64,000 nt of DNA from Bremerella sp. TYQ1. GTDB lineage: Bacteria > Planctomycetota > Planctomycetia > Pirellulales > Pirellulaceae. The notes beneath the pieces are model-generated. The model did not search any database. It saw only the letters and a program-made list of their open reading frames with translations, and was not told the DNA's origin. The stretch covers positions 5,270,001 through 5,334,000 of the forward strand of contig NZ_CP083740.1 in assembly GCF_020150455.1 (NCBI RefSeq), given 5' to 3'. Each line of letters opens with the position of its first letter. Position 1 is the stretch's first letter. This document shows, piece after piece, positions 21,375 through 54,906 of this stretch. A program made the position numbers and the translations under genes.

Positions 21375-24300
21375 TTACGTTCCGTCAGGCGAGATGTATT
21401 GAATCCCTTCCAAAGCCGACGTATTGCTTTGCAGCTTGCCGATGGTCAGTTCCAGATTGTAGAACTGCTTGAGCAGTTGTTCCGACTTCCGTTCGAGACG
21501 AGCTGTCATTGCCAGGATGCGTTCAGTATTGATGTCGGCGCGGGCCTGCAACGTTTGAGCACGACTGACCAGCAGTGAACTACCAGCCCCGGCAAACTGC
21601 TCGGTAAGATTGAAAACCTTGTGAGCGAAGCCGGTGGTTTCTTTGGTGAAGAATGTCTCAACGGCTTCCGGATCCGACTCGAATGCATTCCGCAGCTTGG
21701 TAGTATTCAAGCTCAGCTTGCCGGTGTCGTTGATCTCGAACCCAAGTTGCTCCAGCGATTGAAACTGGCCATTTCCAACGAGACGCGACGTGATCAAACT
21801 GCCTAGCTCGGTATCAACACGTAACGCTTCGTTAGAACCAAACAAAACACCGGTCGAGTTGTCGGCTTCGTTGAAGAAGGTGTTGTCGTCGAGCTTGGTT
21901 CGCAATGCGTTGTACTGGTCAACGAACTCTTGAGCCGCTTTCAACAGCGGTTCATCTGAGATCTGAATGTTGACATTGACTGGCGACGTTGAAGCTTCGT
22001 TGATGGTGAGCGAAACGCCTTCGAGAACTTCGCTGAATTTATTCGTATTGGACGAGGTAAGGATACCTGCCGAAGCGTTGCTGGCCGAACCAAATAGCAG
22101 CAGCGCGTCTTGGGCTTCCACGATCTCATCGAAGCGGAACTGGGATTCGCTCGAATCGATGACCACACGTCCCTTGCTTCCGGAGGTGGTGCTAACCAGC
22201 GACAGGCGGACCGGATTGGTGCCGGTTCCAGTGTTTAGCGAGCTGGCCGAAAGACCGATGTCGGCATCGTTGATTTGATCGATGACGTCTTGCAGCGTGT
22301 CCCCATCTTCAATGTTGATAGTGGTGACTTGCGACCCCTCGATAACGGTCCGAGTGACTCCGTCAACCTCTTTCTCGACCCCGGTGCCTAGTAAGCCGAG
22401 GCTTGCCGCCGTGTTGATGGAACTGCCTTCGGTGACGGTCAGCTTCCCAGAGCCGGAAGTCTTGTCGATTAACGCAATGCCGTCCCCGTTGTCGTTAATC
22501 CGGGCTTCGACATTGAGGCTGAGTTCTGCATTGATCTTATCGATCAAGTCACCGACAGTTTCAATCGATGTGTCGGATAAATCAAAGAGTCGCGTGTTGC
22601 CGTCACTATTCTTAATCAAGAACTTGCCACGCTCGATTCCAGCACCTCCTTTGAGGTCGTCGAGCTTGGTGTTCTCGTTGACGAACTGTTGTCCAAGATT
22701 GCCTGAATTGACGGTCAGCGAAGTAGAGTCGTGCTCGATGTTCAGCAACTCGGCACTGTTGGTGCCGTCCGCGTTGGCAATGATGAAATTACTGTCGAAC
22801 GAGCCACTGGCATCGTTCAGTGAAATGCCGGTGCCGGAGGTGTTCACTTTGGCACTGACCGACAGGCCGGAACCATTGATCAACTCGATCAGGTCTTCGA
22901 CCGTTTCTGCCGACGAAAGATCGACATTGGCCGAAGCCCCACTCCGGTCGGTGATCGAAATCGTGCCGAGTGTGCCAAGTCCTTGACCGCCGTTGAGCGA
23001 TGTCAGTAATGTCGACTTAAGACCAGATTGAAGGCGGCGACTGGCGAGCGTACCTCCGGAGGCGGTTCCCGTAAGCCCGAGATCTTCCGCCGTCGAACTG
23101 TTGTTGATGCTGGTAACCGCGAATGTTCCACCGCTGTCGGTCGTCAGATCAACCAGTTCGAGGCTGTCGCCATCGTCGCTGATCTGTGCTCGTAATTTCG
23201 TTGGATCCGCCGCGTTGATCGCATCGATCAGTTGTCCCAAAGTTTGCGGTTCCGACGCCTCGGAAGCTTCGCCTTTGGAAGTTGTTTCGCTGACGGAAGC
23301 GTCGATGATTCGATCGCCGGCCGCACTGGTCGGTTTCGAGGCGGTGAATGTTGCCGCAAATGCGGTGTTGCCGTTCAGTGCTGTGACGACATCGTCCGCG
23401 GTCGTTGCTCCTTCAGCAATACGAACCGTGATAGTTTTCGCTTCCGCATCGAATTCAACGACTTCATTCCCTTGTGTAACCGCACCGTCAGCGACGTAAG
23501 AGATCTCAAAGTCGTCGTAGTTTGCTCCCTTGACTTTCGCCGTGACGTTGACTTGCCCATTGGACGCATCATCGGGAGTCGTGGCACTTGATTGCAGGAC
23601 GCCGCCAGCGGTAACGGCAGTGTCTGAAACATCGACCAGGCCGCTACCATCGCTTCCAGAACCGTTCGACGCGGTGAAAAGGGCACTTGCGGTCGGGTCG
23701 TTGTTAATCGCGTCAATGACGTTCGCGCCGGTCGAGTTGCCAGCATCGATACGAACGGTGAGCGTTTTGTTATCTGGATCGGAATCGTCGTAGGTAACCG
23801 TTTCCGCTCCGGCAGTGACCCCGGCGTCGTCTACGAAAATAATCGTGACGTCGTCGTAACTGCCGCCGGTTCCACCTGCCGTTAAAGTAATGACTGCGTT
23901 AGGGTCGACCGACGTCGTTGTCGCGGAGGCCGTTCCGGTGGTGGCACTCGTCGTGACGGAATCTTTGGCAGGATCGATGATGCCGTTGCCGAGACCATTG
24001 TTGACGGTACTTGCCGTAAAGTACTGACTGGCCGTCGCATCGTCTTCCAGAGTCGAAATGATATCGGCAGCGGTTGTCTTGCCTGCGTCGATTTGAAAAG
24101 TAAGCGTCTTCGCCGTTTCGTCAAAAACGACCGTTTCGCTACCCTTGGTTACCGAAGCGTTGTCTTGGAAGATGATCTGGACACCGTCGTAGTCGCTTCC
24201 TGACTGTACCGACGTAAAGCTGAGTCGTGCATCGCCTGACTTGACGCTTGCGGTGGCGAAGTCCTCTGGCGCGGCGGCCTGTCCAAGATCGATTTCCAGC

Positions 24301-25136
24301 GAAGTGCCATCTCTTAGTGAAACAGAGAGGTCGGCCGCACTTCGGTTGACGCTAATACCGTTGCCATCATTCAGTGCGGAAAGCTGTGTATTCGCGTGCA
24401 GGTTGAGTAAGTCCGCCCCGGTCGCTGAATTCGAGGCCGTGTTGATGCCCTCCAGCCCAAGATCGGCAGCCGTGCTGCTGCTACCAACCGCTTGAACAAC
24501 CAAATTAGATGTTGTTTGTCCCGAGGTATCGGTCAGCTTGATGCGATCGCCATCGACCGTGGCAGTGACTTGAGTGGTATCGTTGTCGTTGATTGCGCTG
24601 AGAACGTCGTCGATCGTCTGGGCGTAGCTTAAGTCGATCGCGGCACTGCTTCCGCTGCGGTCAGTGATGCGAATCTTGCCACGTTGAATACCCTGGCCGC
24701 CGTTCAGTTGATCGAGCGAGATACCATCGTCCAAGCGAGGGCCGTGACTGATCTGAATTTTCCCAGCACTCAACGGTTGTGTCACGGAAGCGACACCAGA
24801 ACTGAGAAACTGTTGGGATTGGGCCGTACGGATGGGCGTGAACTGATAGTTGCCCGTCTTCGGCGTTCCGGTGACAGCAGCCGAAAGGAACGACGTGTTG
24901 CTGCTCGTTGCTTTGGCGGTAGTGAAGAGCGTGCTCTTCTCGAACTTCTTCGCGGTGAACTGAAAGCTTAGAACGCTCGCGGTAAGTTCCGCGATGGCCT
25001 TGGCTTCGGCATTTATCGCCTCGGTACGCGTGACGAGGGCTTCGCGCGGCTGTGCTTCGACCTCAAGCAGTTGCTTGACGGTTTCCGCGATCGGAATCCC
25101 GGTGATTAAACCGGTATTTGCTTGTATGCCTGCCAT
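21375..25136 (-). CDS. fliD: Flagellar filament cap / hook-associated protein 2, giant form
   Basis: A protein of about 1253 residues, more than twice the usual FliD length. The N-terminus (GLITGIPIAETVKQLLEVEAQP) and the C-terminus (LEQLGFEINDTGKLSLNTTKL, then a long coiled-coil helix) are typical. FliD forms the filament cap that folds incoming flagellin. The middle holds several flagellin-IN-like motifs of the form LNGGQGI-RG-I-ITD (near residues 150, 710 and 830). Three tandem copies of the roughly 100-residue beta-rich module also found in FliC and FlgL lie at residues 299-624. ATG 25136 fits the family N-terminus better than an upstream TTG. No good Shine-Dalgarno is seen. Confidence 0.92.
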   Translation of the reverse strand: MAGIQANTGLITGIPIAETVKQLLEVEAQPREALVTRTEAINAEAKAIAELTASVLSFQFTAKKFEKSTLFTTAKATSSNTSFLSAAVTGTPKTGNYQFTPIRTAQSQQFLSSGVASVTQPLSAGKIQISHGPRLDDGISLDQLNGGQGIQRGKIRITDRSGSSAAIDLSYAQTIDDVLSAINDNDTTQVTATVDGDRIKLTDTSGQTTSNLVVQAVGSSSTAADLGLEGINTASNSATGADLLNLHANTQLSALNDGNGISVNRSAADLSVSLRDGTSLEIDLGQAAAPEDFATASVKSGDARLSFTSVQSGSDYDGVQIIFQDNASVTKGSETVVFDETAKTLTFQIDAGKTTAADIISTLEDDATASQYFTASTVNNGLGNGIIDPAKDSVTTSATTGTASATTTSVDPNAVITLTAGGTGGSYDDVTIIFVDDAGVTAGAETVTYDDSDPDNKTLTVRIDAGNSTGANVIDAINNDPTASALFTASNGSGSDGSGLVDVSDTAVTAGGVLQSSATTPDDASNGQVNVTAKVKGANYDDFEISYVADGAVTQGNEVVEFDAEAKTITVRIAEGATTADDVVTALNGNTAFAATFTASKPTSAAGDRIIDASVSETTSKGEASEASEPQTLGQLIDAINAADPTKLRAQISDDGDSLELVDLTTDSGGTFAVTSINNSSTAEDLGLTGTASGGTLASRRLQSGLKSTLLTSLNGGQGLGTLGTISITDRSGASANVDLSSAETVEDLIELINGSGLSVSAKVNTSGTGISLNDASGSFDSNFIIANADGTNSAELLNIEHDSTSLTVNSGNLGQQFVNENTKLDDLKGGAGIERGKFLIKNSDGNTRLFDLSDTSIETVGDLIDKINAELSLNVEARINDNGDGIALIDKTSGSGKLTVTEGSSINTAASLGLLGTGVEKEVDGVTRTVIEGSQVTTINIEDGDTLQDVIDQINDADIGLSASSLNTGTGTNPVRLSLVSTTSGSKGRVVIDSSESQFRFDEIVEAQDALLLFGSASNASAGILTSSNTNKFSEVLEGVSLTINEASTSPVNVNIQISDEPLLKAAQEFVDQYNALRTKLDDNTFFNEADNSTGVLFGSNEALRVDTELGSLITSRLVGNGQFQSLEQLGFEINDTGKLSLNTTKLRNAFESDPEAVETFFTKETTGFAHKVFNLTEQFAGAGSSLLVSRAQTLQARADINTERILAMTARLERKSEQLLKQFYNLELTIGKLQSNTSALEGIQYISPDGT
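23265..24240 (-). repeat. Three tandem copies of the shared filament module in fliD
   Basis: Each copy encodes a strand such as VTIIFVDDAGVTAG, an E-TV-YD turn, then KTLTVRIDAG, a TTA-DV-AIN helix and an ALFTAS strand, ending in DGSG and TAGG. The same order of elements recurs in fliC and flgL. Confidence 0.8.
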
Positions 25137-25281
25137 GAGGTTATGTGCCACGTAGGTGGGCCGTCGCCCACGCAAAAGTTCCGCAGAAAGAGTCCGCGCT
25201 ACTCAACGTTATCGACTAGATAGCCTGCTTCGCTGGAGGAATTTTCCGATTAGGTAGTTTTGAATGGCCACTTCAAGAACA

Positions 25282-25314
25282 AAAAACGCCCGACCAAAAG
25301 GCCGGGCGTTTCTT
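25282..25314 (-). terminator. Intrinsic terminator after fliC
   Basis: On the minus strand AAACGCCCGGCC-TTTT-GGTCGGGCGTTTTTT forms a 12-position GC-rich stem (one G-T pair) followed by T residues. It lies 27 bp after the flagellin stop and separates fliC from fliD. Confidence 0.88.
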
Positions 25315-25340
25315 TTATTGTCAAATCGCTTGAGCCACGA

Positions 25341-28300
25341 TTAACGGAGCAGACTCAAGACGTTCTGTGGGTTCTGGTTGGCGATACCCAACACCGAAGT
25401 ACCCGACTGAACCAGAATCTGCGAACGCGTCAGCTTAGCCGATTCAGCGGCGAAGTCCGCGTCACGGATCGAGCTTTCAGCTTCGGTCAGGTTGGCCAGC
25501 GTATCGTTCAAGGTGTAGATATTCGATTCCAGCGTCGTTTTCTGGAATGCACCCAGTCGACCACGAAGCTGAGTGACCACAGTGATCGTTTCGTCAACGA
25601 TCTTAGCGGCTGCACCCACGTCGGCGGTCAGGCTCTTGGAACCACCCGAACGCAGCTCGAACAAACGTCCGCTGACACCACCGAGGGTTGCCGTGCTGAC
25701 GCTCTGAATACCGAGACGGGCTTGCTGATTGCTAACCACGTCTGGGCCGAGTTGGAACAGGGCACCACCACCCGAGATCTGAAAACTCAGATTCGAGTTG
25801 TCGTCGACCGAAGCATTCAAGGAGAAGCTCAAGTCGAGCGACGAGGTGTTGATCGAAGCCTTGAGACCGTCACCGACAGCTTGGATACCGTTGATGCGGA
25901 CGTCGACGTCGGTACCAACCGAACGGTCAGCAGTTTCGCCAGTGTCATCGGTCAGGCTGAATGTACCGCTCAGAGCCTTGACGCTAACGAAGCTATCCGA
26001 GCCGTAGCGAGTTGCTTGGAACGTCAGACCAGTGTTTTCCAGGTCGGAGTTGCCTTGCAGAGCAGCACCTTGGACGGAGCCGTTATCGACCACGCCACCG
26101 GTCAGCGTTGCGGTGTCGTCAACTGTGACAACCCCAGCACCACTACCGCCAGCGGTTGCCGAGAACAACGCAGCGACATCGGCATCGTAATTACCATCAC
26201 CGGAATCGAAGATGTCTTCGATGTCGGCAGCGGTCGTCGCACCTTCTTCGATGTAGAAGGTAAGCGTCTTCGATGCCGCATCGTATTCAGCACGTTCGTC
26301 GGTGCCAGCGGTGACCGTGGCATCGTTGACAAACTGAATGGTCACGTCATCGTACTCTTCGCCACCGTTGATCGCAGTCAGCGTGAGCTGAGCGTCTTCG
26401 CCGTTGACAGCCGTGGTCGTGCCAGTTGCCTGGGCATCTTCCAAGTCAGTACCACTGGTGGAGAACGAAATGTCTTCCGTGGAGACTGCCAGGACACCGG
26501 AACCGTCGCTACCACCCGAGTTGGTGACGCTGATACCGCGTTCGGCCAGATAAGCAGCCGTGTTCGCAGCTTCGGTGCCGTCTTCGATGAATTGGCTTGG
26601 ATCATCGAAGAATGCGATCAGATCGTTCGCAGTCGTCGTGATGGTGCCGTTTTCATCCGTGGCCAGGTTGATGACCAGCGTGCCTTCTGATTCGACGCCA
26701 CCGGTAGTTCCAGCAGGAATGTCGAGGTCGGCAATCGTGATAGCATCGGTACCGTCGCTCGAACCAAAGTTCGATGCTTCAAAGTACTGGCTCACGTAAG
26801 CGTCATCGTTGATGGCGGTCAAGACGTCGTCAGCAGTTGTGACACCATCTTCGATGTTGATGGTGATCGTCTTGTTTTCTTTATCGAGAACAGCGTACTC
26901 GTTGCCACCGCCGGTGACCGAAGCGTTGTCGACAAAGCTAATGGTGTAGCCATCGAAGTCGGTGCCTTTCAGCTTCGACTTGATCTCGAACGATCCGTTG
27001 GCATCGGCATTCTGGATGACGGCGGTCGAATAACCTTCGACGCGAGGATCGGTCGTGGTGTCGATGCTCAGGCCGGTACCTGGATTCGAGACGAAACGAA
27101 TGTTTGGATTCGACTCTGGGGCCAGGAACTGCAGCGAGTTGTTCTGTTCGGCGACACCGCTGTTAGCAACGTCGGTGAACTCGGAGACAACGCCGTAGCC
27201 ATTGTTGCCTGCTTGCAGCGAAGCGGTGACTTTGTCGTTGCCCGAAGCAGAGTTGATTGCTTCGATGACGTCATTGGCGGTTGCGATCACGTCGCCACCG
27301 TCAACACCACCGGCAGTCGCCGTACCATAGGTGCCAGTGAAAGCAACTGCACCGGCACCGGTGCCGTTGGTTTCGACCAAAGCAGCGGTGAACAAAGCAG
27401 CGGTGGCTGCATTGTTGGAGGTTGCGGTAACAGCACCACTGTCTGCGACAGCGATCGTACCGGAACCGTCACTACCGGTAACGTTGGCAGCTGCGGTGAA
27501 CAAAGGACCGACTGTTGCGTCGCCGTTCAATGCAGTGATCACTTGGTTAGCGGTCGACACACCATCTTGAATACCGACGGTGATAACAACGTTATCAGGA
27601 TCGCTATTGTCGTAGGTAACCGTTTCACTACCGGCTGTAGCCGTATCAGTAAAGTTGATCGTAACGTTGTCGTTCGCCAAGCCGGTCGAATCCGACGTCA
27701 ACGTGAACAGCGAGTTACCACCGGAGGCGGTACCAACGACTGCGGTCGGGGTGTCGGCGAGGGCGTGCGTGTTGTTCACAGCAGCGACGATGTCGGCAGC
27801 GGTGGACGCAGCGTTTTTGGTAATCGTCAACGTTTTGGCGTCGGCGTCATAGACTGCCGTTTCTTCGCCCGTGTTCGCACCGTCGGCAAAGATGATGCTG
27901 ACGTCATTGAAGTCGGCACCGAGCTGATCGGCGGTGATCGTGAAGTCGTTGTCCGTACCAGCGGTGTCGACGGTAACGGATGCTGCTTCGTAATCACGGA
28001 CGCCGAGGGCGACTTCGATGGTGGCTGGATCGTCGCCGACCGAACCGGAGTAGTTCGCGGTGGTCGAGGAAGACGAACCTTTGACGTACTTGACGCGGAC
28101 GTCGCCGGCGTCGAAGCCAGCTTCGTTGGCGGTCAGCAGGACGTCGTTGTTTTCGCCGTAGCTGGAAGCGACTAGAGTACCCTTCGTGGCAGCCGTTTCG
28201 ACGATGGCTTCCACGCCGGTCGCGTCCGAGACCAGGTTGACGGCCGAAGCAACTTCTTCGATGGTCGAACCCTTGGCGAAGTTGAAGGCTTCTGTACCGT

Positions 28301-28910
28301 TGCCGCCACCGATTTGCAGCACGAGATCTTCAGCGATCGCACCGAAGTTGTAGTTCAGTTGACCACGGGTCGCTTGCTTGACGACGTTGACCTCGACGCC
28401 GATAGCACTGAACGAACCGAAGTTGGCCTGGTCGACGCGAAGACCTTCGATCGAGTTGTTGTCGACGCCATTGGTGATGAAGTCGAGGTTACCGTCCAGG
28501 AGACGTTTGCCCTGGAAGGAGGTGATTTGGGCGATACGATCGATAGCTTCAAGCGACGAGTCGATCTGCAACTGGTTAGCTGCGATCTGTTCTTCACTCA
28601 ACGCACCGGTATTCGCGGCTTCCGAGGTCAGACCACGGATGTCGTTGAGCAGCTGGCTCACCTGGCCGAGAGCACTATCGGCAGTTGCGATCAGCTGATT
28701 GGCTCGCTCACTGTTGGTGATGGCCTTTTCGACGCTGATGATATCGCTTCGAAGACCTTCACTGGCGATCAAACCGGCCGGATCGTCTTTACCACGATTG
28801 ATCCGGAGACCGGTGCTCAAACGACCCAGAGCGGTTTGCAAATCGCTGTTGGAACGCGACAAGGTGTTCTGAGCAATGAGAGAGCTGACGTTAGTATTGA
28901 TTCGGGTCAT
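25341..28910 (-). CDS. fliC: Flagellin, giant form with module-filled outer domain
   Basis: An 1189-residue flagellin; typical ones have 270-500. The D0/D1 N-terminus (residues 1-160) is standard: INTNVSSLIAQNTLSRSN, RLSTGLRINRGKDDPAGL, then a long helix. The C-terminus is also standard: EAESSIRDADFAAESAKLTRSQILVQSG and NPQNVLSLLR, the FliS-binding end. Residues 180-1030 form the outer domain, with about five copies of a roughly 100-residue module (312-395, 398-500, 634-737, a partial one 738-805, and 835-938). The Shine-Dalgarno AGGAGGGG is strong and contains a GGA. A terminator follows, so it is probably mainly monocistronic. CsrA/FliW control is likely. Confidence 0.97.
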   Translation of the reverse strand: MTRINTNVSSLIAQNTLSRSNSDLQTALGRLSTGLRINRGKDDPAGLIASEGLRSDIISVEKAITNSERANQLIATADSALGQVSQLLNDIRGLTSEAANTGALSEEQIAANQLQIDSSLEAIDRIAQITSFQGKRLLDGNLDFITNGVDNNSIEGLRVDQANFGSFSAIGVEVNVVKQATRGQLNYNFGAIAEDLVLQIGGGNGTEAFNFAKGSTIEEVASAVNLVSDATGVEAIVETAATKGTLVASSYGENNDVLLTANEAGFDAGDVRVKYVKGSSSSTTANYSGSVGDDPATIEVALGVRDYEAASVTVDTAGTDNDFTITADQLGADFNDVSIIFADGANTGEETAVYDADAKTLTITKNAASTAADIVAAVNNTHALADTPTAVVGTASGGNSLFTLTSDSTGLANDNVTINFTDTATAGSETVTYDNSDPDNVVITVGIQDGVSTANQVITALNGDATVGPLFTAAANVTGSDGSGTIAVADSGAVTATSNNAATAALFTAALVETNGTGAGAVAFTGTYGTATAGGVDGGDVIATANDVIEAINSASGNDKVTASLQAGNNGYGVVSEFTDVANSGVAEQNNSLQFLAPESNPNIRFVSNPGTGLSIDTTTDPRVEGYSTAVIQNADANGSFEIKSKLKGTDFDGYTISFVDNASVTGGGNEYAVLDKENKTITINIEDGVTTADDVLTAINDDAYVSQYFEASNFGSSDGTDAITIADLDIPAGTTGGVESEGTLVINLATDENGTITTTANDLIAFFDDPSQFIEDGTEAANTAAYLAERGISVTNSGGSDGSGVLAVSTEDISFSTSGTDLEDAQATGTTTAVNGEDAQLTLTAINGGEEYDDVTIQFVNDATVTAGTDERAEYDAASKTLTFYIEEGATTAADIEDIFDSGDGNYDADVAALFSATAGGSGAGVVTVDDTATLTGGVVDNGSVQGAALQGNSDLENTGLTFQATRYGSDSFVSVKALSGTFSLTDDTGETADRSVGTDVDVRINGIQAVGDGLKASINTSSLDLSFSLNASVDDNSNLSFQISGGGALFQLGPDVVSNQQARLGIQSVSTATLGGVSGRLFELRSGGSKSLTADVGAAAKIVDETITVVTQLRGRLGAFQKTTLESNIYTLNDTLANLTEAESSIRDADFAAESAKLTRSQILVQSGTSVLGIANQNPQNVLSLLR
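26098..27975 (-). repeat. Region with about five copies of the shared filament module in fliC
   Basis: The copies differ in sequence but keep the same order: a DVTI-FVNDATVTAG strand, E-Y-A-KTLT strand, EGATTA-D helix, FSATAG strand and a terminal GG. At the DNA level they are diverged, so they look old or under selection to differ. Confidence 0.75.
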
Positions 28911-29000
28911 TTTGAGACACCCCTCCTAGTTGAGGACTACGTTTGGTTCCAACCGAGACGGGGAGTCGTGACTCAGCTGGTGCGGCTGCAAAACGCAGCC
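28911..29000 (-). promoter_or_regulatory. fliC leader: strong RBS with GGA, upstream GGA, and a hairpin
   Basis: On the minus strand the Shine-Dalgarno AGGAGGGG (28921-28928) sits about ten bases before ATG 28910 and contains a GGA. A second GGA (28948-28950, in GGTTGGAACC) lies some 25 bases upstream. A perfect stem GGCTGC-GTTTT-GCAGCC covers 28984-29000. Two GGA sites, one overlapping the RBS, is the arrangement used by CsrA to repress flagellin in Bacillus. CsrA binding here is inferred, not shown. Confidence 0.5.
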
Positions 29001-29187
29001 CCGAAATATATGGGAACGAACGATTGTCAATCTCGAGTTTGGCCATGCATGGTGTTGACGAAAGTCGTCGCCAGCGGGGCCTGCCCCGTTCGACGTCCTA
29101 AAAACCGAGCTAGCTACGTGGTCAGCGCAGCTTGTGCGAGGATTCCGAAACGTCTAGATGGGAAGATCGTCACACTTTGACACTAGC

Positions 29188-29301
29188 TTGAGATAAAGAG
29201 ATTCTTTTTCGTTGACGTACGAGTTGACGGAAGTTGTTTGCCTTGTCTATTCGTCAACGTCAGAACAGCCAGTACAACCGGGCATCGGTTGAGATAAAGA
29301 G
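29188..29301. repeat. 13-bp direct repeat upstream of fliC
   Basis: TTGAGATAAAGAG occurs at 29188-29200 and again at 29289-29301, exactly 101 bp apart. That spacing is close to a whole number of helical turns (about 9.6). Flanking bases differ. Confidence 0.7.
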
Positions 29302-29554
29302 TGTTGCTAGCTGGATTGCCATTTCCCAAACGTAGGGGAAGGAATGGCCGAAGATTCCCGAAGAAAAACGCTTTATGAGCGTACAGATTGGTGGCGCAAG
29401 AGGACCATCTCAGCGGTCGCGCACGAGTAAGCAGTCAAGGGTGCAAAATGTCCGTGGGAGAGTGCTCTCCGGCAATACCGCACTACGGATTGCCGAAGAC
29501 AGTGCAGCGCAAGGCGGGCCGTGCTGCGCGGACTGTGTCGGTAGGGAGAGGCTG

Positions 29555-29591
29555 GGAGGTCGCCTGAATCGACTCAGGATGGTCGACCTCC
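29555..29591 (-). terminator. Hairpin after the flagellar csrA
   Basis: GGAGGTCG and CGACCTCC pair around an inner CCTGA/TCAGG stem with a small asymmetric bulge. It lies 17 bp after the csrA stop (minus strand). No T-run follows, so it may protect a 3' end rather than terminate. Confidence 0.5.
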
Positions 29592-29607
29592 GTACGTACC
29601 GACGCGC

Positions 29608-29832
29608 TTACTTGCGTCCCTTTTTCATCATGGCCGTATCTTCCGGTTGCATACCGGAGGCCTGCATGTTTTCGCGTTTGATGGCTTCGTAGACTTCCTG
29701 GCGATGAACCGGGATGTCTTGAGGGGCAGCAATCCCCAGACGAACTTTGTCTCCACGAATATCCACAATCGTGATGACAATGTTGTCGCCGATCATGATG
29801 CTTTCGTCACGGTGCCTCGAGAGTACCAGCAT
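29608..29832 (-). CDS. csrA: CsrA translational regulator (flagellar copy)
   Basis: A 74-residue CsrA with MLVLSRHRDESIMIGDNI and IRGDKVRLGIAAPQDIPVHRQEVYEAI. It binds GGA motifs in mRNA leaders as a dimer. AAGGAG stands eight bases before the ATG. The C-terminal tail (MQASGMQPEDTAMMKKGRK) is longer and basic at the end, unlike the acidic tail of the first copy. It lies between fliW and fliC on the same strand, the arrangement known from Bacillus, where FliW sequesters CsrA and free CsrA represses flagellin translation. Confidence 0.96.
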   Translation of the reverse strand: MLVLSRHRDESIMIGDNIVITIVDIRGDKVRLGIAAPQDIPVHRQEVYEAIKRENMQASGMQPEDTAMMKKGRK

Positions 29833-30045
29833 CTCTGGCTCCTTCCTACTTTTATTTCAATCAAGGTATAGGGCATATGGTGCTTGTTCGATTCCGTCCA
29901 GCCCCGAATGACCGCAGTGATGCAGTCGCTCGCCAGCAATGATAGCAGTGCATTGCTATGACTCGACGTGTTGAGTATCGGACACCTAGAGAGCAGGAAT
30001 CAGTTTTCGATTCACGGATACTGTTCTGACGGCAAGTCCGGATGT

Positions 30046-30486
30046 TCAAGCACTGCGACGAAGTGGGATTGTTTCAGTCGCAATGACATGCCGCAGCGGC
30101 TGTTCGTCGGTCGTTATGACCTGACGGCCTACCTGCAAAGAAAGATTGATTAAGAGCGGAGCCCGCAGATTTACGGTCACCAGGCTCGATTCGCGGCTAA
30201 CGATCACCAGGACGAAAGTTTCCATACCGGCGTCGATCTTCAGCGAATTGGCCTGTTCTGGGCTGATTCGGACCTTATAGGAAGGGATGTATCGTCGCGG
30301 ACTGACGACCGCAAACGCTAAGCCAGGGTCTTCCATCGACTGAAGCCAGCCGACCGATTCGTTGGATTCATCTGCCAAAATCGCCCACTTAGTGTGCGTA
30401 TCGAATCCAATCAAGCCACCTGCGAAGGTGATGATTTCATCTTGGCGAATGTCGAGCTTACCGAATCGGGTAGTTTGAACTTCCAT
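30046..30486 (-). CDS. fliW: Flagellar assembly factor FliW (CsrA antagonist)
   Basis: A 146-residue protein of normal FliW size. FGKLDIRQDEIITFAGGLIGFDTHTKWAIL and the FVLVIVSRESSLVTVNLRAPLLIN stretch are the family signatures. FliW binds CsrA or flagellin in a mutually exclusive way, so flagellin translation follows export. The start is ATG 30486; GGGG lies just upstream. The gap to csrA is 213 bp and to flgL 117 bp, so it may have its own promoter. Confidence 0.94.
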   Translation of the reverse strand: MEVQTTRFGKLDIRQDEIITFAGGLIGFDTHTKWAILADESNESVGWLQSMEDPGLAFAVVSPRRYIPSYKVRISPEQANSLKIDAGMETFVLVIVSRESSLVTVNLRAPLLINLSLQVGRQVITTDEQPLRHVIATETIPLRRSA

Positions 30487-30603
30487 GGCCCCTGGCGTCC
30501 TTGCAAGGTCTTGGCGACGAACTAGTTACGGACGCGAAGAAAACGCCCTATTCTCTTTATCGGTTCTTCATTCGGAGGAATCCACACAATCGTCAAAGTC
30601 AGA

Positions 30604-33600
30604 CTAAATAAAGTCTAACAACGTCAACTGGTACAGCTGGCCGGCCGTTTGAAGCGACGCTTGAAATGATGCCTGTTTAGCGGTCATCTCGGTGATGGCC
30701 TGTACGATATCGACATCGATTTCCAACGAAAGATTGGTCTTTAGTTCCAAGATTTCGTCTTCGCCGCGTGCTTTGAGAACGTCAACATGTTGATCCCGGG
30801 CACCCAGTTCGCCTCGAGTAAAACTAAGCCGCTGGATGTCTTCTTCGATCAGTCCTGCGATACGGGAAACCTCTTGGACGTTTTTCGTGTCGATGGCGTC
30901 TTTCAAACGAAGCAGCGAGTTGAAGATGCCTTTGGTTTCGAGTGGGTTCGTGTTTCGACCTTGGAGAACTTCCGCGGAACCTCCGGCGGTTGTGCCAACG
31001 GTTCCTGCCGCATGAATAATCCCCGTTCCGGAATTCGTCAGGTCGTTTGTGAAATTGAGCTTGGCGTCGAAATCGCCTTGCTGGTCGATAGCAGCGATCA
31101 CCTGATTGGCAGTGGTAACGCCGGCTTCAATCTGAACTGTCAGTGTTTTGGTGGCCGGATTAAAAGCCGCACTGGGAACACCACCTGAAAGCGAATCCTC
31201 GAACACAACTTGAACGTCGTTCATGCGTGTTCCAGGATATTTCGCAACCACTGAGAACGCGGAGTTCAAGTGATTCGGTGAGGCAAACGAAATATCGGCA
31301 GTTGCGGCGGCCGAGTCTGCGACCGGGGTTCCACCGTTGGTCGATGCCATGACGCCGGTTTGCGTAATGAGCCCGGTGCCGGCGTTCGTTACATCGTCGC
31401 TGGAATGCAACTCGGCATTGAATGTTCCTTCCGCTTTGATGGCGGCGATTACCGTGTTCGCGGAGGTCAGCGTCGGATCGACATCGATCGTTAGCTTCTG
31501 CGTGGCCGCGTCATACGAAACCAAGGCCTCATTGCCATTGGCGGCATTGTTGACTATTTCAATCTGGACGTTGTTGTAACTGGTGCCTGGATGATTTGCG
31601 GTTAGCTTAAAAGCGTTATTGACATCGTCTGGGGCGGTAAACTTGACGACTGCAGTCGCTGGTTGAGCATCTGGTGAATCAGATACGGTCGCCTCGGTCT
31701 GCCCAGCCGGGATAAGCCCCAGATCGGTTCCTGCCTGGCTCAACACTCCCTGAGAAACAGTGAGACGGCCGAAGCCAGGCGGATTGTCGTCGATCAGTTC
31801 GATTCCATTGCCGAACTCGGCAAGTCGGGCCGTCACATTATTGGGACTGTCGAGGTTCTTGGGATGATTGTTAATCTGATTCAGCACGTCACCAATGGTC
31901 TTAGCGCTCGCCAAATCGATTTCTAGTTCGACACCGTCGTTTCGGGTAATGGTCAGATCGGTTCCGTCGGTACCGTTGACCCCTTTGCCAAAATTCAAAT
32001 CGGAAAGCAACGTTCCAGACGTGAAGCTTCGTAAACCTAACTGAGTGGCCGTTTCGCCGCCGTTTTCTCCGATTGAGAAATTGCCACCGCTGACGTTGGA
32101 GCGAACATTGATACCATTGCCATTGGCGTTGATTTCAGCAACGAGCCCCGCTCCACTACCGTTGAAGACATTCAGCAGGTCTTCAACGGTCTCGACATCT
32201 TCGAACGTAAGAGTCGTGATTTCGTCGCCGTTTTGAATTTGAATGCCAGAGTTCTTGTCGAACGTTGTTCCTGACCCGCCTGTCGTTTCGCCGATGACAC
32301 TGGTGCTGACCGTTCCACTGGCAGTCAGAAAGTCAGCGGTAGTGTCTTTCGGATCGATCTCGGCAGTAAACTCGCTTGAAAACTTCGCGTTATTATTGAG
32401 GGCACGAATCAGATCGTTCGCAGTCGTTGTTCCGCTGGCAACTTGCACGAAATAGGTGTCGACTTCCCCGCCCGTGTTGCCTGTGTTGCCGATGGTTCCT
32501 GCACTGGCGATGTTGACTGAAGCGGTCAAGTTGAATGCTTCGCCGTTGCCATTATCGCTTGTCACCGAAAACGTGCCATCTGCGGCGATGGCATTCATAA
32601 TCGACTGAACAGTCGTTTCGTTCGTGTCGTCAATTTGTATGGTCAGACGGCGTGTTGTGCCATCGTCGGTATACGTTGCCGTCGCCGCGTCGCCGAGATC
32701 ACTCGAGGCGTCGATGACGATCTCGACATCGTTGAACAGATCACCAGCCTGATTGGCAATCAGTGTTAAGTCGTTGCCGCCACCAACCAATGGCAACGAA
32801 GCACGAGCTTTGACAGCTTGGGTGGTGACATAAGCCGTCGATATTTGCCCGTCGTTCGCTGTCGTGACGGCCGAAGTTGGATTGAACCCTTCGCCGGTGG
32901 AAGTCGCTTTGCCGACAGCGAAGCGACCATCTGTCGCGAATGCATTCATTAACGACTGGAGCGACGTCTCATCACTGTCGTCAATTTGAACGGTGATCGT
33001 CGGAACGCCATCAACGAGAGTCGTGGGACCAATAACGGCGGTGTCTCCGATGTCGCTCGATGCATCGAAAACGATTTGAGCACCATCGAGACTGCCGTCG
33101 GTGGAGTTGGCTGTGAGCAGAAGATCGTTATCCGCTCCGTCAAGATTGAGCGTCACTTGAGGACGCAAGAGGTCTTCGCCTTTGGTGACAATTTCATTGC
33201 CACGAGCGATCCCCGTGCCGGCCTTCAATAAGTTGTCGTCGACAAGTTGAATCTTGGTCCCGTTGAGCGACTCGCCATTTGCATTTGCTTTGATCAGGAT
33301 GTCGTTGTTCGAGCCGGGGTACTCCAGAATCGTTTTGGACTTCGTTCCAAGAAGGTTCTCAACTTTCGTCGTTAACGTCACTCGCGGATTGAGATCGGCA
33401 CCGACGATAGGATTGGTCAGATTGCCTTCTGTTTTCAGAATCCCAAGCTGAGCAGCAACTCGGCTTCCACCCACTTCGCGAATCGTTAGATTGCCACCAC
33501 CGGCGTCGTCAATGTCGACGATCAAACCGTTATCGCTAATTCTCGCGGTGACGGTACGACCTGCCGGTGGGTTCGCTTCAATTAATTTCGCGACATCAGC

Positions 33601-34344
33601 AAGCGTGTTCGCTTTGGTGATGTCAATCGTTACCGGCGGGGAAAGTCCGTCCGAAATCTGGAAGCTTCCTTTCTGGATCCCCTTCCCTCCCCTGAGGTCG
33701 GCCAGCTTTGTCGAGCCACTAACGATCGGATTTAAGTCACTCAACCCTTGAACTTGTTGACTGATCGCTCCAAACGCGTCATGCCCATTGACGGTCGTGT
33801 CGAACAGCAAGTCGATATCGGCGAAACTTTGCAGTCCGGTCGTGTTGCCTTGGTATTGGATTAAACCATTTTCAAGTGACTGAAACGGTGTTGTTGTGGT
33901 GTTCGATCCTGAGAATAGATATCGGCCACGGAACTGCTGGTTCGATAAGTCCAGCAATTGTTGGATGGCTCGTTCAACTTGTTCTCCGGCGGCGGCAAGT
34001 TCTGTGTCGGAAAATGTTGTATCCGCTAAACGAACGGCCAAACCTTTGACGTCATTTAAAGTCGTCTGGACGTTTGCCAACGCTACATCGGTGGCTGAAA
34101 GATACGATTGACTGGTAATCAGGTTCGTTTGGATCTGTGATTTCTGTTCCAGCAGCGACTGAAGAGTCACGCCACGAATTGCGGCCGGCGCGTCATCACT
34201 TAACGAAAGGACACGACGACCGGTGCTCAATTGCGTTTGCAGACGCAACAAGTCGAGCTGGTCGGACGACATCTGATTGGTCAAACGCTGCGACAGTAAG
34301 TAGTCGCTTGTTCGACCTGCTGGTACCGGGATGATTCGTGTCAT
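30604..34344 (-). CDS. flgL: Hook-filament junction protein FlgL, giant form
   Basis: A 1246-residue FlgL; typical ones have about 300. The N-terminus (LLSQRLTNQMSSDQLDLLRL and LSTGRRVLSLSDDAPAA) and the region to residue 160 (QFRGRYLFSGSNTTTTPF) are classic FlgL/flagellin D0-D1. The C-terminus has the helix LEIDVDIVQAITEMTAKQASFQASL. Between them lie IN-type motifs (LADLRGGKGIQKGSFQISD near residue 220) and at least four module copies in two groups, residues 400-690 and 895-1125. It caps FlgK and anchors the filament. It is followed by fliW and preceded by flgK with a 69-bp gap. Confidence 0.93.
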   Translation of the reverse strand: MTRIIPVPAGRTSDYLLSQRLTNQMSSDQLDLLRLQTQLSTGRRVLSLSDDAPAAIRGVTLQSLLEQKSQIQTNLITSQSYLSATDVALANVQTTLNDVKGLAVRLADTTFSDTELAAAGEQVERAIQQLLDLSNQQFRGRYLFSGSNTTTTPFQSLENGLIQYQGNTTGLQSFADIDLLFDTTVNGHDAFGAISQQVQGLSDLNPIVSGSTKLADLRGGKGIQKGSFQISDGLSPPVTIDITKANTLADVAKLIEANPPAGRTVTARISDNGLIVDIDDAGGGNLTIREVGGSRVAAQLGILKTEGNLTNPIVGADLNPRVTLTTKVENLLGTKSKTILEYPGSNNDILIKANANGESLNGTKIQLVDDNLLKAGTGIARGNEIVTKGEDLLRPQVTLNLDGADNDLLLTANSTDGSLDGAQIVFDASSDIGDTAVIGPTTLVDGVPTITVQIDDSDETSLQSLMNAFATDGRFAVGKATSTGEGFNPTSAVTTANDGQISTAYVTTQAVKARASLPLVGGGNDLTLIANQAGDLFNDVEIVIDASSDLGDAATATYTDDGTTRRLTIQIDDTNETTVQSIMNAIAADGTFSVTSDNGNGEAFNLTASVNIASAGTIGNTGNTGGEVDTYFVQVASGTTTANDLIRALNNNAKFSSEFTAEIDPKDTTADFLTASGTVSTSVIGETTGGSGTTFDKNSGIQIQNGDEITTLTFEDVETVEDLLNVFNGSGAGLVAEINANGNGINVRSNVSGGNFSIGENGGETATQLGLRSFTSGTLLSDLNFGKGVNGTDGTDLTITRNDGVELEIDLASAKTIGDVLNQINNHPKNLDSPNNVTARLAEFGNGIELIDDNPPGFGRLTVSQGVLSQAGTDLGLIPAGQTEATVSDSPDAQPATAVVKFTAPDDVNNAFKLTANHPGTSYNNVQIEIVNNAANGNEALVSYDAATQKLTIDVDPTLTSANTVIAAIKAEGTFNAELHSSDDVTNAGTGLITQTGVMASTNGGTPVADSAAATADISFASPNHLNSAFSVVAKYPGTRMNDVQVVFEDSLSGGVPSAAFNPATKTLTVQIEAGVTTANQVIAAIDQQGDFDAKLNFTNDLTNSGTGIIHAAGTVGTTAGGSAEVLQGRNTNPLETKGIFNSLLRLKDAIDTKNVQEVSRIAGLIEEDIQRLSFTRGELGARDQHVDVLKARGEDEILELKTNLSLEIDVDIVQAITEMTAKQASFQASLQTAGQLYQLTLLDFI
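30970..31660 (-). repeat. Shared filament module, C-terminal group in flgL
   Basis: Two copies encode FKLTANHPGTSYNNVQIEIV and FSVVAKYPGTRMNDVQVVFE strands, each followed by a TQKLTI or TKTLTV strand, a T-AN-VIAAI helix, and an NAGTGLI or NSGTGII turn. The copies are diverged at the DNA level. Confidence 0.75.
32275..33145 (-). repeat. Shared filament module, N-terminal group in flgL
   Basis: Two full copies with the pattern NDL-L-AN, D-VEIVIDASSDLGD, RLTIQIDD and a Q-IMNAIA helix, then a partial copy with a TTTANDLIRALN helix. They are closer to each other than to the fliC copies. Confidence 0.7.
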
Positions 34345-34413: not shown

Positions 34414-36114
34414 TTACAGGTTGACCAAAATTTCTAATAGCTCGTCGAGTGTGGCAATCATTCGTGACGAGGCTTGAAATTGTCTTTGATAGGTAATCAT
34501 GCGTACTGCCTCCTCATCGAGGTTCACGCCACTGACGCCTAGTTTTTGGCCTTCTAACGTGTCTTTAAACACGCGAAAGCCTTCGGTGATTCCCTTGGTG
34601 ACCGCGGAAGTTTGCGCGACTCCACCCACGAGATCTTTATAAAACGTCGCGACCGAAGTCCCGCCGAAAGAATCGAGAGCTCGGTCCGAGAACGAGGCCA
34701 AAGCCAACGCGTTTTCGGTGTCCTTGCCAATCCCTGATTTACTAGCGGCGAATTTGGAAGGATCTTTGCTCACCATCTCGTTCACGCCCATATCAAGCGC
34801 CGACGAACCTGTGAAGAATGTGCCTACCCCAAGTGCTGCCAATACGCCGCTGGTATCATCGGCGAACGCAAATTCGACGTTCGGTTCATCGGCTTCGATC
34901 TGAAGTTGACCTTCCAGGGTGATCGTCGCCGATAGTCCATCGATTGCATCGAGCGAAGCTCTCAAGTCTTCAAGCGACGTGTCTTCGTTGGTACCGTTCA
35001 GTTCGATAAAGATGTCGTGCGTTTCCGATACGCCCGTCTGTCGATTTAACATCTTTACTTGGAACGATCCATTTTCAGGAGTGAACGGCAGTCCAACTTG
35101 GTCAAGGGCATCTGTCAGTTGATCCGCACTGACAAAGTGTTCCGCTTCAACCGATTCATAACCGGTTAGACCCTGCCCGCTGCTAAAAACCTTGTTGAAT
35201 TCAAACGCGAACGACTTTGCGAAATCGTCCAGCTGCGTTAGAAAGTCGCCAAGGATATGATCCCGCGAGTTAACGAGACCAGCTAGTTTGCCAGTGTCTG
35301 ATTGAATAGGAGACTCAAAATCGGCGATCTTGATTTCCACGAAGTTGATGCCATCGCTGGGAACTTCGTCGGCGTAAACTTGTCGGGCAATGCCATCCGT
35401 TACCAGGTACTCGCCCCCAGCGAAGACCGAGACGGCACCATTTTCCTGTTCGACGGCACGAATACCGATCAGCTCGGAAAGCTCTGTTAATTTCCGCTGG
35501 CGTTGATCGCGAAGGCCTACGGCGTCGCTTTTGGTTACGCCCCCTTCCATCTCGGTGATCTTCTCATTCAAATCGGCGATGTCCGTTAGCAAGCCATTTA
35601 TGTCACCTGCGGCATCGCGGATCCGGTCGTTTGTGTCGATTTGAACTTGTTGCACACGCTCGTAGAGACGCTTGATATCCGCAGCGAGTGTTTCGCCACG
35701 CAGGATCGTCAGATTACGAACGCCCAGGTCTTCCGGTTGATTTAGAATGTCGTTGATAGACCCGAAGAAGTTGTTGAGCGACGTACTGAGGTCGGTGTCG
35801 CTAAGTTCGCCAATCAGTGCGTCAAGCTGCGTGAACGTGTTTTCTTCGGCTTCACCTTTGGCCAGATCGCTACGCGAACCACGGAGGCGTTCTTCCAGGA
35901 AGTGGTCGACCTGTTGAACGATCGCCTCGACTTGAACGCCAAGCCCTAGACGCAAGTTGCCCACGGCCTGAGTCGGCGCAGGCGTATAAATCACACGCTG
36001 CCGAAGGTAATCGGGCGTGTTGACGTTCGCGATATTATTGCCGGTGACTTGCAACCCAACTTGGGCCGCATTCAGGGCATTGTTCGCTTGTTGTAGAGAG
36101 CTAAAGAGAGACAT
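34414..36114 (-). CDS. flgK: Flagellar hook-associated protein 1 FlgK
   Basis: A 566-residue FlgK of normal size. The N-terminus has ALNAAQVGLQVTGNNIANVNTPDYLRQRV, the rod/hook/HAP signature. The C-terminal helix VNLDEEAVRMITYQRQFQASSRMIATLDELLEILVNL is the D0 partner. FlgK forms the hook-proximal junction zone. Unlike its neighbours FlgL, FliC and FliD it has no copies of the roughly 100-residue module, though residues around 330-430 hold a smaller beta-rich insert (FQVKMLNRQTGVSETHDIFI) typical of FlgK. Confidence 0.95.
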   Translation of the reverse strand: MSLFSSLQQANNALNAAQVGLQVTGNNIANVNTPDYLRQRVIYTPAPTQAVGNLRLGLGVQVEAIVQQVDHFLEERLRGSRSDLAKGEAEENTFTQLDALIGELSDTDLSTSLNNFFGSINDILNQPEDLGVRNLTILRGETLAADIKRLYERVQQVQIDTNDRIRDAAGDINGLLTDIADLNEKITEMEGGVTKSDAVGLRDQRQRKLTELSELIGIRAVEQENGAVSVFAGGEYLVTDGIARQVYADEVPSDGINFVEIKIADFESPIQSDTGKLAGLVNSRDHILGDFLTQLDDFAKSFAFEFNKVFSSGQGLTGYESVEAEHFVSADQLTDALDQVGLPFTPENGSFQVKMLNRQTGVSETHDIFIELNGTNEDTSLEDLRASLDAIDGLSATITLEGQLQIEADEPNVEFAFADDTSGVLAALGVGTFFTGSSALDMGVNEMVSKDPSKFAASKSGIGKDTENALALASFSDRALDSFGGTSVATFYKDLVGGVAQTSAVTKGITEGFRVFKDTLEGQKLGVSGVNLDEEAVRMITYQRQFQASSRMIATLDELLEILVNL

Positions 36115-54587: not shown

Positions 54588-54906
54588 CGAACGGTCCCGG
54601 GGCTGGTGGTGTGATGAGAGTTTGCCGAGTAGCTCTGTTATCTCAGACATAGACGATTCAGGCCAGGAAATGGTTTTTACCGTTTTCCAGGCATCTTTAC
54701 GCCTTTCATCGCTTCCTCTGTTCTACGTCATAAGTGTCCTGGCAGCAAATAGTTAACGCTAAATTCGCTTCGTTGAATCTGTTGCTGCATGGTAGTTGTT
54801 GCTGAGAAAATCGACCTTTCCGCGAACTGCCTTCATCGGTACGATCGGCCCCCACTTTGAACCAGGCAGGGCCTGGAAGCATGGATGGTAATAGGGGGTT
54901 TGGGCT

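What the first reader, a model, noticed from the sequence alone, without database searches (positions are those of the whole stretch)
21375..34344. FliC, FliD and FlgL all enlarged by the same module
Flagellin (1189 aa), cap (about 1253 aa) and hook-filament junction protein (1246 aa) each carry several copies of one beta-rich module of about 100 residues, with the order strand V-I-FVD-ATVTAG, KTLTV strand, TTA-DV-AIN helix, FTAS strand. FlgK between them has none. Three proteins that touch one another along the axis sharing one expansion suggests that the module either decorates the filament surface or lets the cap and junction match a thick filament. The copies are diverged in DNA, so this is not recent slippage.
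Basis: partly seen in the sequence, partly recalled or inferred. Interest (0 to 1): 0.8.

Follow-up and report, generated by a model that had tools for sequence, protein, structure and literature searches.

The report
Shared nested modules enlarge flagellar proteins
In this Bremerella-like planctomycete, the propeller filament protein, its tip cap and its base connector are all swollen by copies of one uncatalogued protein module, sometimes inserted inside one another like Russian dolls, which shows one way bacteria can build oversized flagellar proteins.

Summary
FliD carries 3, FliC 4 and FlgL 4 whole copies of one ~108-residue module. Profiles built from two of the proteins find the third at 112-213 bits, against at most 4.9 for 200 shuffles each. 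FlgK has none, but its gene is not between the others. Single modules pass no Pfam cut-off seen here. First, in FliC and FlgL modules are nested: one is split in a strand hairpin and hosts whole modules; in this FliC a further module sits inside the guest. The split pattern occurs in 64 of 81 FliC, 89 of 122 FlgL and 0 of 38 FliD. Second, over genus means FliC length does not follow FliD (rho -0.04 to -0.06) but does moderately follow FlgL (0.34 to 0.42): cap-to-filament matching is not supported, junction-to-filament matching possible. A surface-building role is likeliest. The module's second half resembles Flagellin_IN; its first half resembles phage tail-sheath domain II, a weaker link. Verdict: a real new variant of a known kind (enlarged flagellar outer domains), widespread in its order.

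The parts
21375..25175 (-). fliD, filament cap (1266-codon ORF; likely start ATG gives 1253 aa)
   Evidence: Pfam FliD_N and FliD_C over cut-off; the closest relatives are 1253-1258 aa
23922..24263 (-). FliD module D1 (aa 305-418 of the ORF)
23592..23921 (-). FliD module D2 (aa 419-528)
23262..23576 (-). FliD module D3 (aa 534-638)
25341..28910 (-). fliC, flagellin, 1189 aa
   Evidence: Pfam Flagellin_N and Flagellin_C
28182..28484 (-). FliC proximal hub, N part (about aa 143-243), pairs with 25767-26078; resembles FliD D2-D3
25767..26078 (-). FliC proximal hub, C part (about aa 945-1048)
   Evidence: boundary approximate
27981..28181 (-). FliC split module C0, N half (aa 244-310)
   Evidence: HMM positions 4-43, 23.7 bits; joined to C half 33.5 bits against 26.1 best of 100 controls
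27738..27980 (-). FliC module C1, N part (aa 311-391), interrupted by C2
27411..27734 (-). FliC module C2 (aa 393-500), whole module nested inside C1; absent from 3-module relatives
27291..27410 (-). FliC module C1, C part (about aa 501-540)
   Evidence: the same residues follow the helix directly in relatives without C2
27147..27290 (-). FliC split module C0, C half (aa 541-588)
   Evidence: HMM positions 59-96, 18.8 bits
26697..27029 (-). FliC module C3 (aa 628-738)
26094..26420 (-). FliC module C4 (aa 831-939)
30604..34344 (-). flgL, hook-filament junction protein, 1246 aa
   Evidence: Pfam Flagellin_N over cut-off; Flagellin_C below it; FlgL homologues
33163..33357 (-). FlgL split module L0, N half (aa 330-394)
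   Evidence: HMM positions 4-34, 25.7 bits
32845..33162 (-). FlgL module L1 (aa 395-500), inside L0
32488..32811 (-). FlgL module L2 (aa 512-619), inside L0; matches phage 812 sheath in VIA-align
32236..32469 (-). FlgL split module L0, C half (aa 626-703)
   Evidence: HMM positions 48-99, 35.6 bits
31330..31665 (-). FlgL module L3 (aa 894-1005)
30979..31305 (-). FlgL module L4 (aa 1014-1122)
34414..36114 (-). flgK, 566 aa, no module; lies upstream of flgL
   Evidence: Pfam FlgK_D1

Best explanation
The module is a compact, mostly Cys-free, acidic beta-rich outer domain (typically five strands, one helix, two strands) that Pirellulales flagella use as a building brick on three axial proteins. 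Each copy lies between the two halves of the axial core, so after export and folding it should point away from the filament axis (inferred). Copies are added as whole units, either in tandem (FliD; FlgL L3-L4) or into a loop of an existing module (FliC C0 containing C1 containing C2; FlgL L0 containing L1 and L2). Nesting puts the new copy at the tip of the old one, so the surface should grow outward without disturbing the core; that step is inferred from topology. The likely function is to make a thick, decorated outer layer on filament, cap and junction that contacts neighbouring subunits or surroundings, and not to keep filament and cap the same size. Shown: homology of copies, repeated predicted strand order, split halves, whole-module length steps, absence from FlgK, no FliC-FliD length correlation over genera. 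Inferred: radial position, thickness, surface function.
For: Homology across proteins. All 51 ORFs with a module of 35 bits or more in 20 fetched stretches of relatives plus the window are FliC (19), FliD (15) or FlgL (17), and 0 of 15 FlgK ORFs carry it (stretches were chosen around module hits). The order five strands, helix, then strands recurs in 6 of 8 copies of the two models (L1-L4, C3, C4); C1 is cut by C2, and C2 shows four strands before its helix (mean pLDDT 89.5 and 79.2). Length rises by 110 aa per module in FlgL (r2 0.83) and 122 in FliD (r2 0.91). Split modules flanking whole ones in 64 of 81 FliC and 89 of 122 FlgL. C2 interrupts C1 in 4 FliC and C1 is uninterrupted in the other 6 of 10 aligned. 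Precedent: giant flagellins with repeats giving filaments of at least 30 nm (PMC6248924, section 13 and passages).
Against: No filament from this group was seen, so thickness and exposure are untested. Folds are predictions; the FliC model has pTM 0.54 and FliD was not modelled. The FliC slope is 218 aa per module (r2 0.57), so other sequence also adds length. The module is not flagellum-only: P0089, a metagenomic protein without flagellar ends that by eye looks adhesin-like, carries eight whole copies and one partial, and large extracellular proteins of one relative (G330) give weak hits. A further pair of putative halves around C3 was not supported.
Confidence: 0.58

Rival explanations
1. 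Size matching: cap and junction grow to fit a thick filament, so that the cap still covers the growing end and the junction passes smoothly into the filament.
For: All three are large in the order: FliD 838-1464 and FlgL 692-1448 codons in 62 genomes each after dropping partial genes. FliC and FlgL correlate: rho 0.57-0.62 over 59 and 55 genomes, 0.34-0.42 over 40 and 39 genus means (p 0.03 and 0.007), 0.24-0.35 without the own family (p 0.15 and 0.03).
Against: FliC-FliD: rho -0.04 over 42 genus means, -0.06 over 40 with both FliC ends checked; only single genomes give 0.22-0.27. FliD-FlgL -0.27 over 41. Extreme pair: FliC 1449 with FliD 838. FliC gains or loses a module within the genus without change in the others.
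Confidence: 0.2
2. A mobile adhesive or cementing module: the copies bind surfaces, polymers or each other, as in adhesins, and spread among whichever exported proteins have a tolerant loop.
For: Copies in P0089, which has no flagellar ends; acidic, Cys-poor copies (mean net charge -9.3, 4 of 655 with Cys); similarity to an exposed domain of phage tail sheaths that was proposed to stabilise the sheath disk (PMC9230969, passages).
Against: No ligand or binding residue identified. In this genome all hits are in the three axial proteins. Movement between genes was not shown: neither C2 with D2 as one clade nor all FliC copies as one clade is rejected (p-AU 0.23 and 0.32).
Confidence: 0.2
3. Neutral ratchet: tolerant outer loops accumulate module duplications by recombination, with no common function.
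For: Copy number varies between close relatives, and FliC and FliD lengths are uncorrelated over genera.
Against: The 62 FliD and 62 FlgL lengths kept all stay well above those of model bacteria (468 and 317 aa in E. coli, recalled). Most module positions form supported orthologue groups through the genus (D2 less clearly), and in FliD and FlgL modules diverge only slightly faster than the cores.
Confidence: 0.15

Closest known systems
Giant flagellins with duplicated Domain-Extension regions (Oceanospirillales; PMC6248924; passages and section 13 seen)
   Same: Flagellin over 1000 aa, enlarged by repeated outer units; Planctomycetes are named there among lineages with giant flagellins.
   Different: That paper treats flagellin; 'FliD' occurs 0 times in its text. 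It weighs tandem against split folding, favours tandem and leaves it to future structures. Here the module is shared with cap and junction, and both tandem and nested layouts occur. Their repeat was not compared with ours.
Flagellin_IN, Pfam PF07196
   Same: Beta-alpha motif found in flagellin and FliD; IN-type repeats sit beside the module in FliD and FlgL. The module's second half matches them (hhalign 24.7, null maximum 14.9 of 100).
   Different: Single modules pass no IN cut-off; the module is about twice as long (55 positions in the Pfam model), with an extra strand block in front.
Phage tail sheath domain II (PF17481; PHROG 279)
FliD D2-D3 and flagellin D2 domains
   Different: Ranges span several domains of the model, so which domain matches is unclear; sequence identity 9-18%.
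Flagellin outer-domain sheaths and screws (PMC8931119; abstract and outline seen)
   Same: Outer domains form contacts on the filament surface and affect motility.
   Different: There, dimers or tetramers were seen by cryo-EM; nothing comparable was measured here.

Membership tests
Flagellin / FliD / FlgL | Conserved N- and C-terminal core domains | tested here: met
   Flagellin_N/C, FliD_N/C over cut-off; FlgL has Flagellin_N over and Flagellin_C below cut-off (15.3 of 23 bits)
Giant flagellins with repeated extension | Flagellin over 1000 aa with repeated central unit | tested here: met
   1189 aa, 4 copies
Giant flagellins with repeated extension | Filament at least 30 nm thick | not testable with these tools
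   needs electron microscopy
Giant flagellins with repeated extension | Homology of the module to the published DE region | not tested
   DE sequences were not fetched
Flagellin_IN (PF07196) | Single module reaches the curated cut-off | tested here: not met
   not among the 17 families matched by 11 members; not among the 25 shown of 33 families for 36 members
Flagellin_IN (PF07196) | Profile similarity above background | tested here: met
   second half only, hhalign 24.7 against null maximum 14.9 of 100, P 2.5e-4
Phage_sheath_domII (PF17481) | Curated cut-off of 31.4 bits | tested here: not met
   best 22.3 bits in 60 genomes, own included; two real sheath proteins also miss it
Phage_sheath_domII (PF17481) | Profile similarity above background | tested here: met
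   27 columns, 23.4 against null maximum 13.2 of 100; sheath set selected by the GxWGN motif
Phage_sheath_domII (PF17481) | Same fold over the whole domain | tested here: inconclusive

The most novel reading that the evidence does not exclude
The module shares ancestry with the exposed beta-sandwich domain (domain II) of phage contractile tail sheaths: a phage-type surface domain was fused to an IN-like beta-alpha unit and then recruited as a stackable, nestable brick by all three outer axial proteins of the flagellum.
Probability: 0.22. Interest if true: 0.75.

Novelty: new variant of a known kind. Interest (0 to 1): 0.52.

Why it matters
It shows one module enlarging three partner proteins of a nanomachine while sparing the fourth (FlgK), with no length tie between filament and cap. 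It also gives a concrete natural case for the published question of how a repeat-bearing giant flagellin can fold: whole modules nested in a loop of another module, with the empty-site version present in sister species. The order-wide set (lengths for about 60 genomes) makes tests of filament thickness against module number possible.

Tried and rejected
Size matching of cap and filament: tested by length correlation and not supported. Rows dropped: FliC 2 of 65 genomes (G356, G404: no full flagellin hit, or a stop), FliD 4 of 66 (G352, G383, G384, G398: partial or suspected cut genes; G384 was not checked), FlgL 5 of 67 (G352, G361, G383, G394, G404). In one search five more FliC were dropped (G351, G361, G366, G367, G422) because no N-terminal hit in an ORF of the same length was listed; in G422 the two ends lie in different frames, so its 486 codons are not a full length. 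This re-check raised FliC-FlgL from 0.34 to 0.42, and I raised the size-matching rival accordingly. FliD was checked by its C end and FlgL by its N end only. Where a genome had several flagellins the best-scoring one was used. Lengths are open-frame codons; no tree was used.

FliD as donor of FliC module C2: C2 and D2 are 56% identical and share a SDPxN insert, but the tree leaves C2 unplaced, and neither C2+D2 nor 'all FliC copies together' is rejected. No transfer between genes is claimed. C4 groups with FliD D3 at 95/87 in that tree, under midpoint rooting only.

A further split module around C3: halves score 1.9 and 7.1 bits, joined 4.0, below controls: dropped. For C1 the joined score (67.8) is no better than controls (71.3), and for L0 and C0 the halves in swapped order score nearly as high (53.4 and 33.3), so order is shown by the HMM positions, not by the sums. 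The nesting of C2 rests on the comparison with relatives.

Phages carrying the module: tblastn of module D2 against 50,697 phage records gave one hit at E=6; FliC hits in phage records start and end at the flagellin ends and cover at most 27%. PDB by sequence: the first profile gave a sheath first (8kee, E 0.012), the broader one did not list it, so that lead is unstable. Sheath families were hit by 2 of 11 members, and by 3 of 36 (Pfam) or 4 and 1 of 36 (PHROGs 279 and 165), among many weak unrelated families. Foldseek against PDB: no match at E<=0.001. Against viral models the best rows by E are long low-TM alignments; an unnamed viral protein (F6LQD4) has probability 1.00 with both models and a tail sheath protein 0.80 with FlgL, at E 0.01-0.4.

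Homologue searches were drawn from module regions, so counts are biased towards bearers; one search listed 120 of 444. In one search at most 16 candidates a genome were scored.

Literature: listings in the PMC open library show no title about this shared module; subscription papers are not covered.
Full report
What is there. The window lies in a 6.66 Mb one-contig genome. Its closest named homologues are Bremerella and Blastopirellula, so it is taken as a Pirellulaceae planctomycete. On the minus strand run a rod/hook-type gene, flgA, flgH, flgI, a rod-binding gene, flgN, flgK, flgL, fliW, a csrA-like ORF (by recalled consensus), fliC, fliD and fliS.

Check of the observation. I cut 11 copies by eye and aligned them. 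HMMs trained on the copies of two proteins find the third at 193.7, 212.9 and 112.2 bits, while the best of 200 shuffles each reaches 3.5, 4.0 and 4.9 and the reversed proteins score below -32. FlgK and a 2789-aa neighbour score at most 0.1 bit. In the own genome all 15 hits lie in the three genes.

Distribution. 45 of 60 genomes, own included, have the module at E<=0.001. In an even draw of 294 genomes of the phylum, own included, 10 do, five of them in the own order (at most 16 candidates a genome scored). Of the five outside, two are true flagellins with weaker copies (L100, L101) and three were not recovered with a larger profile. In the own family, two large extracellular frames of one genome (G330) give weak hits. 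All 51 ORFs with a module of 35 bits or more in the 20 fetched stretches plus the window are FliC, FliD or FlgL, and 0 of 15 FlgK ORFs bear it. Of 256 homologous proteins, 255 match at least one FliC, FliD or FlgL end (86, 41, 128); the other, P0089, is a metagenomic protein that by eye looks adhesin-like, with eight whole copies, one partial, and no Pfam match. The module is therefore an exported brick not confined to flagella.

Nesting. In FlgL a module is split: its first half (HMM 4-34, 25.7 bits) ends by aa 394, L1 and L2 follow whole, and its second half (HMM 48-99, 35.6 bits) starts after aa 626. In FliC, C0 is split alike (HMM 4-43 and 59-96; joined 33.5 bits against 26.1 best of 100 controls). 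In FlgL the cut falls between predicted strands 4 and 5. Within C0, C1 is itself interrupted by C2: in six of ten aligned FliC the helix of C1 runs on into LF[TS]AALVE, while in this genome and three others a whole module stands between them. Two second-halves then follow in a row, which a plain tandem duplication would not give. Among complete homologues the split pattern appears in 64 of 81 FliC, 89 of 122 FlgL and 0 of 38 FliD, so in these FliD only tandem copies were seen.

Growth in whole units. Median FliD lengths are 1029, 1147.5 and 1254 aa for 1, 2 and 3 modules; FlgL 895, 1006, 1127 and 1245 for 1 to 4. Slopes are 122 and 110 aa per module (r2 0.91 and 0.83); for FliC 218 (r2 0.57), so FliC also grows by other sequence.

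Is it size matching? In a draw of 107 genomes of the order, own included, 65, 66 and 67 have hits for FliC, FliD and FlgL. After dropping partial genes, FliD spans 838-1464 and FlgL 692-1448 codons (62 genomes each); FliC with both ends in one frame spans 583-1449 (58 genomes). Over genus means rho for FliC-FliD is -0.04 (42) or -0.06 (40); for FliC-FlgL 0.34 (40, p 0.03) or 0.42 (39, p 0.007), and 0.24 or 0.35 without the own family; for FliD-FlgL -0.27 (41). Single genomes give higher values (FliC-FliD 0.22-0.27, FliC-FlgL 0.57-0.62) but are not independent. No tree was used. The cap does not follow the filament across genera; the junction does to a moderate degree.

Evolution. Most copies form orthologue groups by position through the genus (D2 not as one supported group). 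In FliC modules C1-C4 diverge faster than the core (71-94% against 93-99% identity); in FliD and FlgL only slightly faster than the core. Exchange between genes was suspected for C2 and D2 but is not shown.

Conclusion. A real enlargement of three axial proteins by one uncatalogued module that is stacked and nested, widespread in the order. The most likely role is building an outer surface layer; size matching of cap to filament is not supported, of junction to filament is possible.

Noticed in passing
window 27411-27734 and relatives L034-L041: The FliC of close species differs by one nested module (1193-1194 versus 1078-1081 codons), and the grouping of FliC variants in the quick tree conflicts with that of FliD, which hints at exchange of flagellin outer regions within the genus.
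   Followed up: partly
L043; L047: Second flagellin genes: one distant copy in G026, a tandem pair (1057 and 1055 codons) in G052.
   Followed up: no
P0089: Metagenomic protein of 1450 aa with eight whole module copies and one partial, no flagellar ends and no Pfam match; adhesin-like by eye.
   Followed up: partly
order-wide: After dropping partial genes, each FliD and FlgL kept (62 genomes each) is about 1.8 to 4.6 times the E. coli size (recalled), even where flagellin is only 583 codons (G045).
   Followed up: partly
window 29608-30486: A fliW and a csrA-like ORF lie between flgL and fliC.
   Followed up: no
window 46281-54650: A 2789-aa protein that by eye looks like TPR repeats plus an alpha-2-macroglobulin-like region; not annotated with tools.
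   Followed up: no
own genome C1:2011866-2012027: A 4732-codon open frame outside the window has a Flagellin_IN hit over the cut-off.
   Followed up: no
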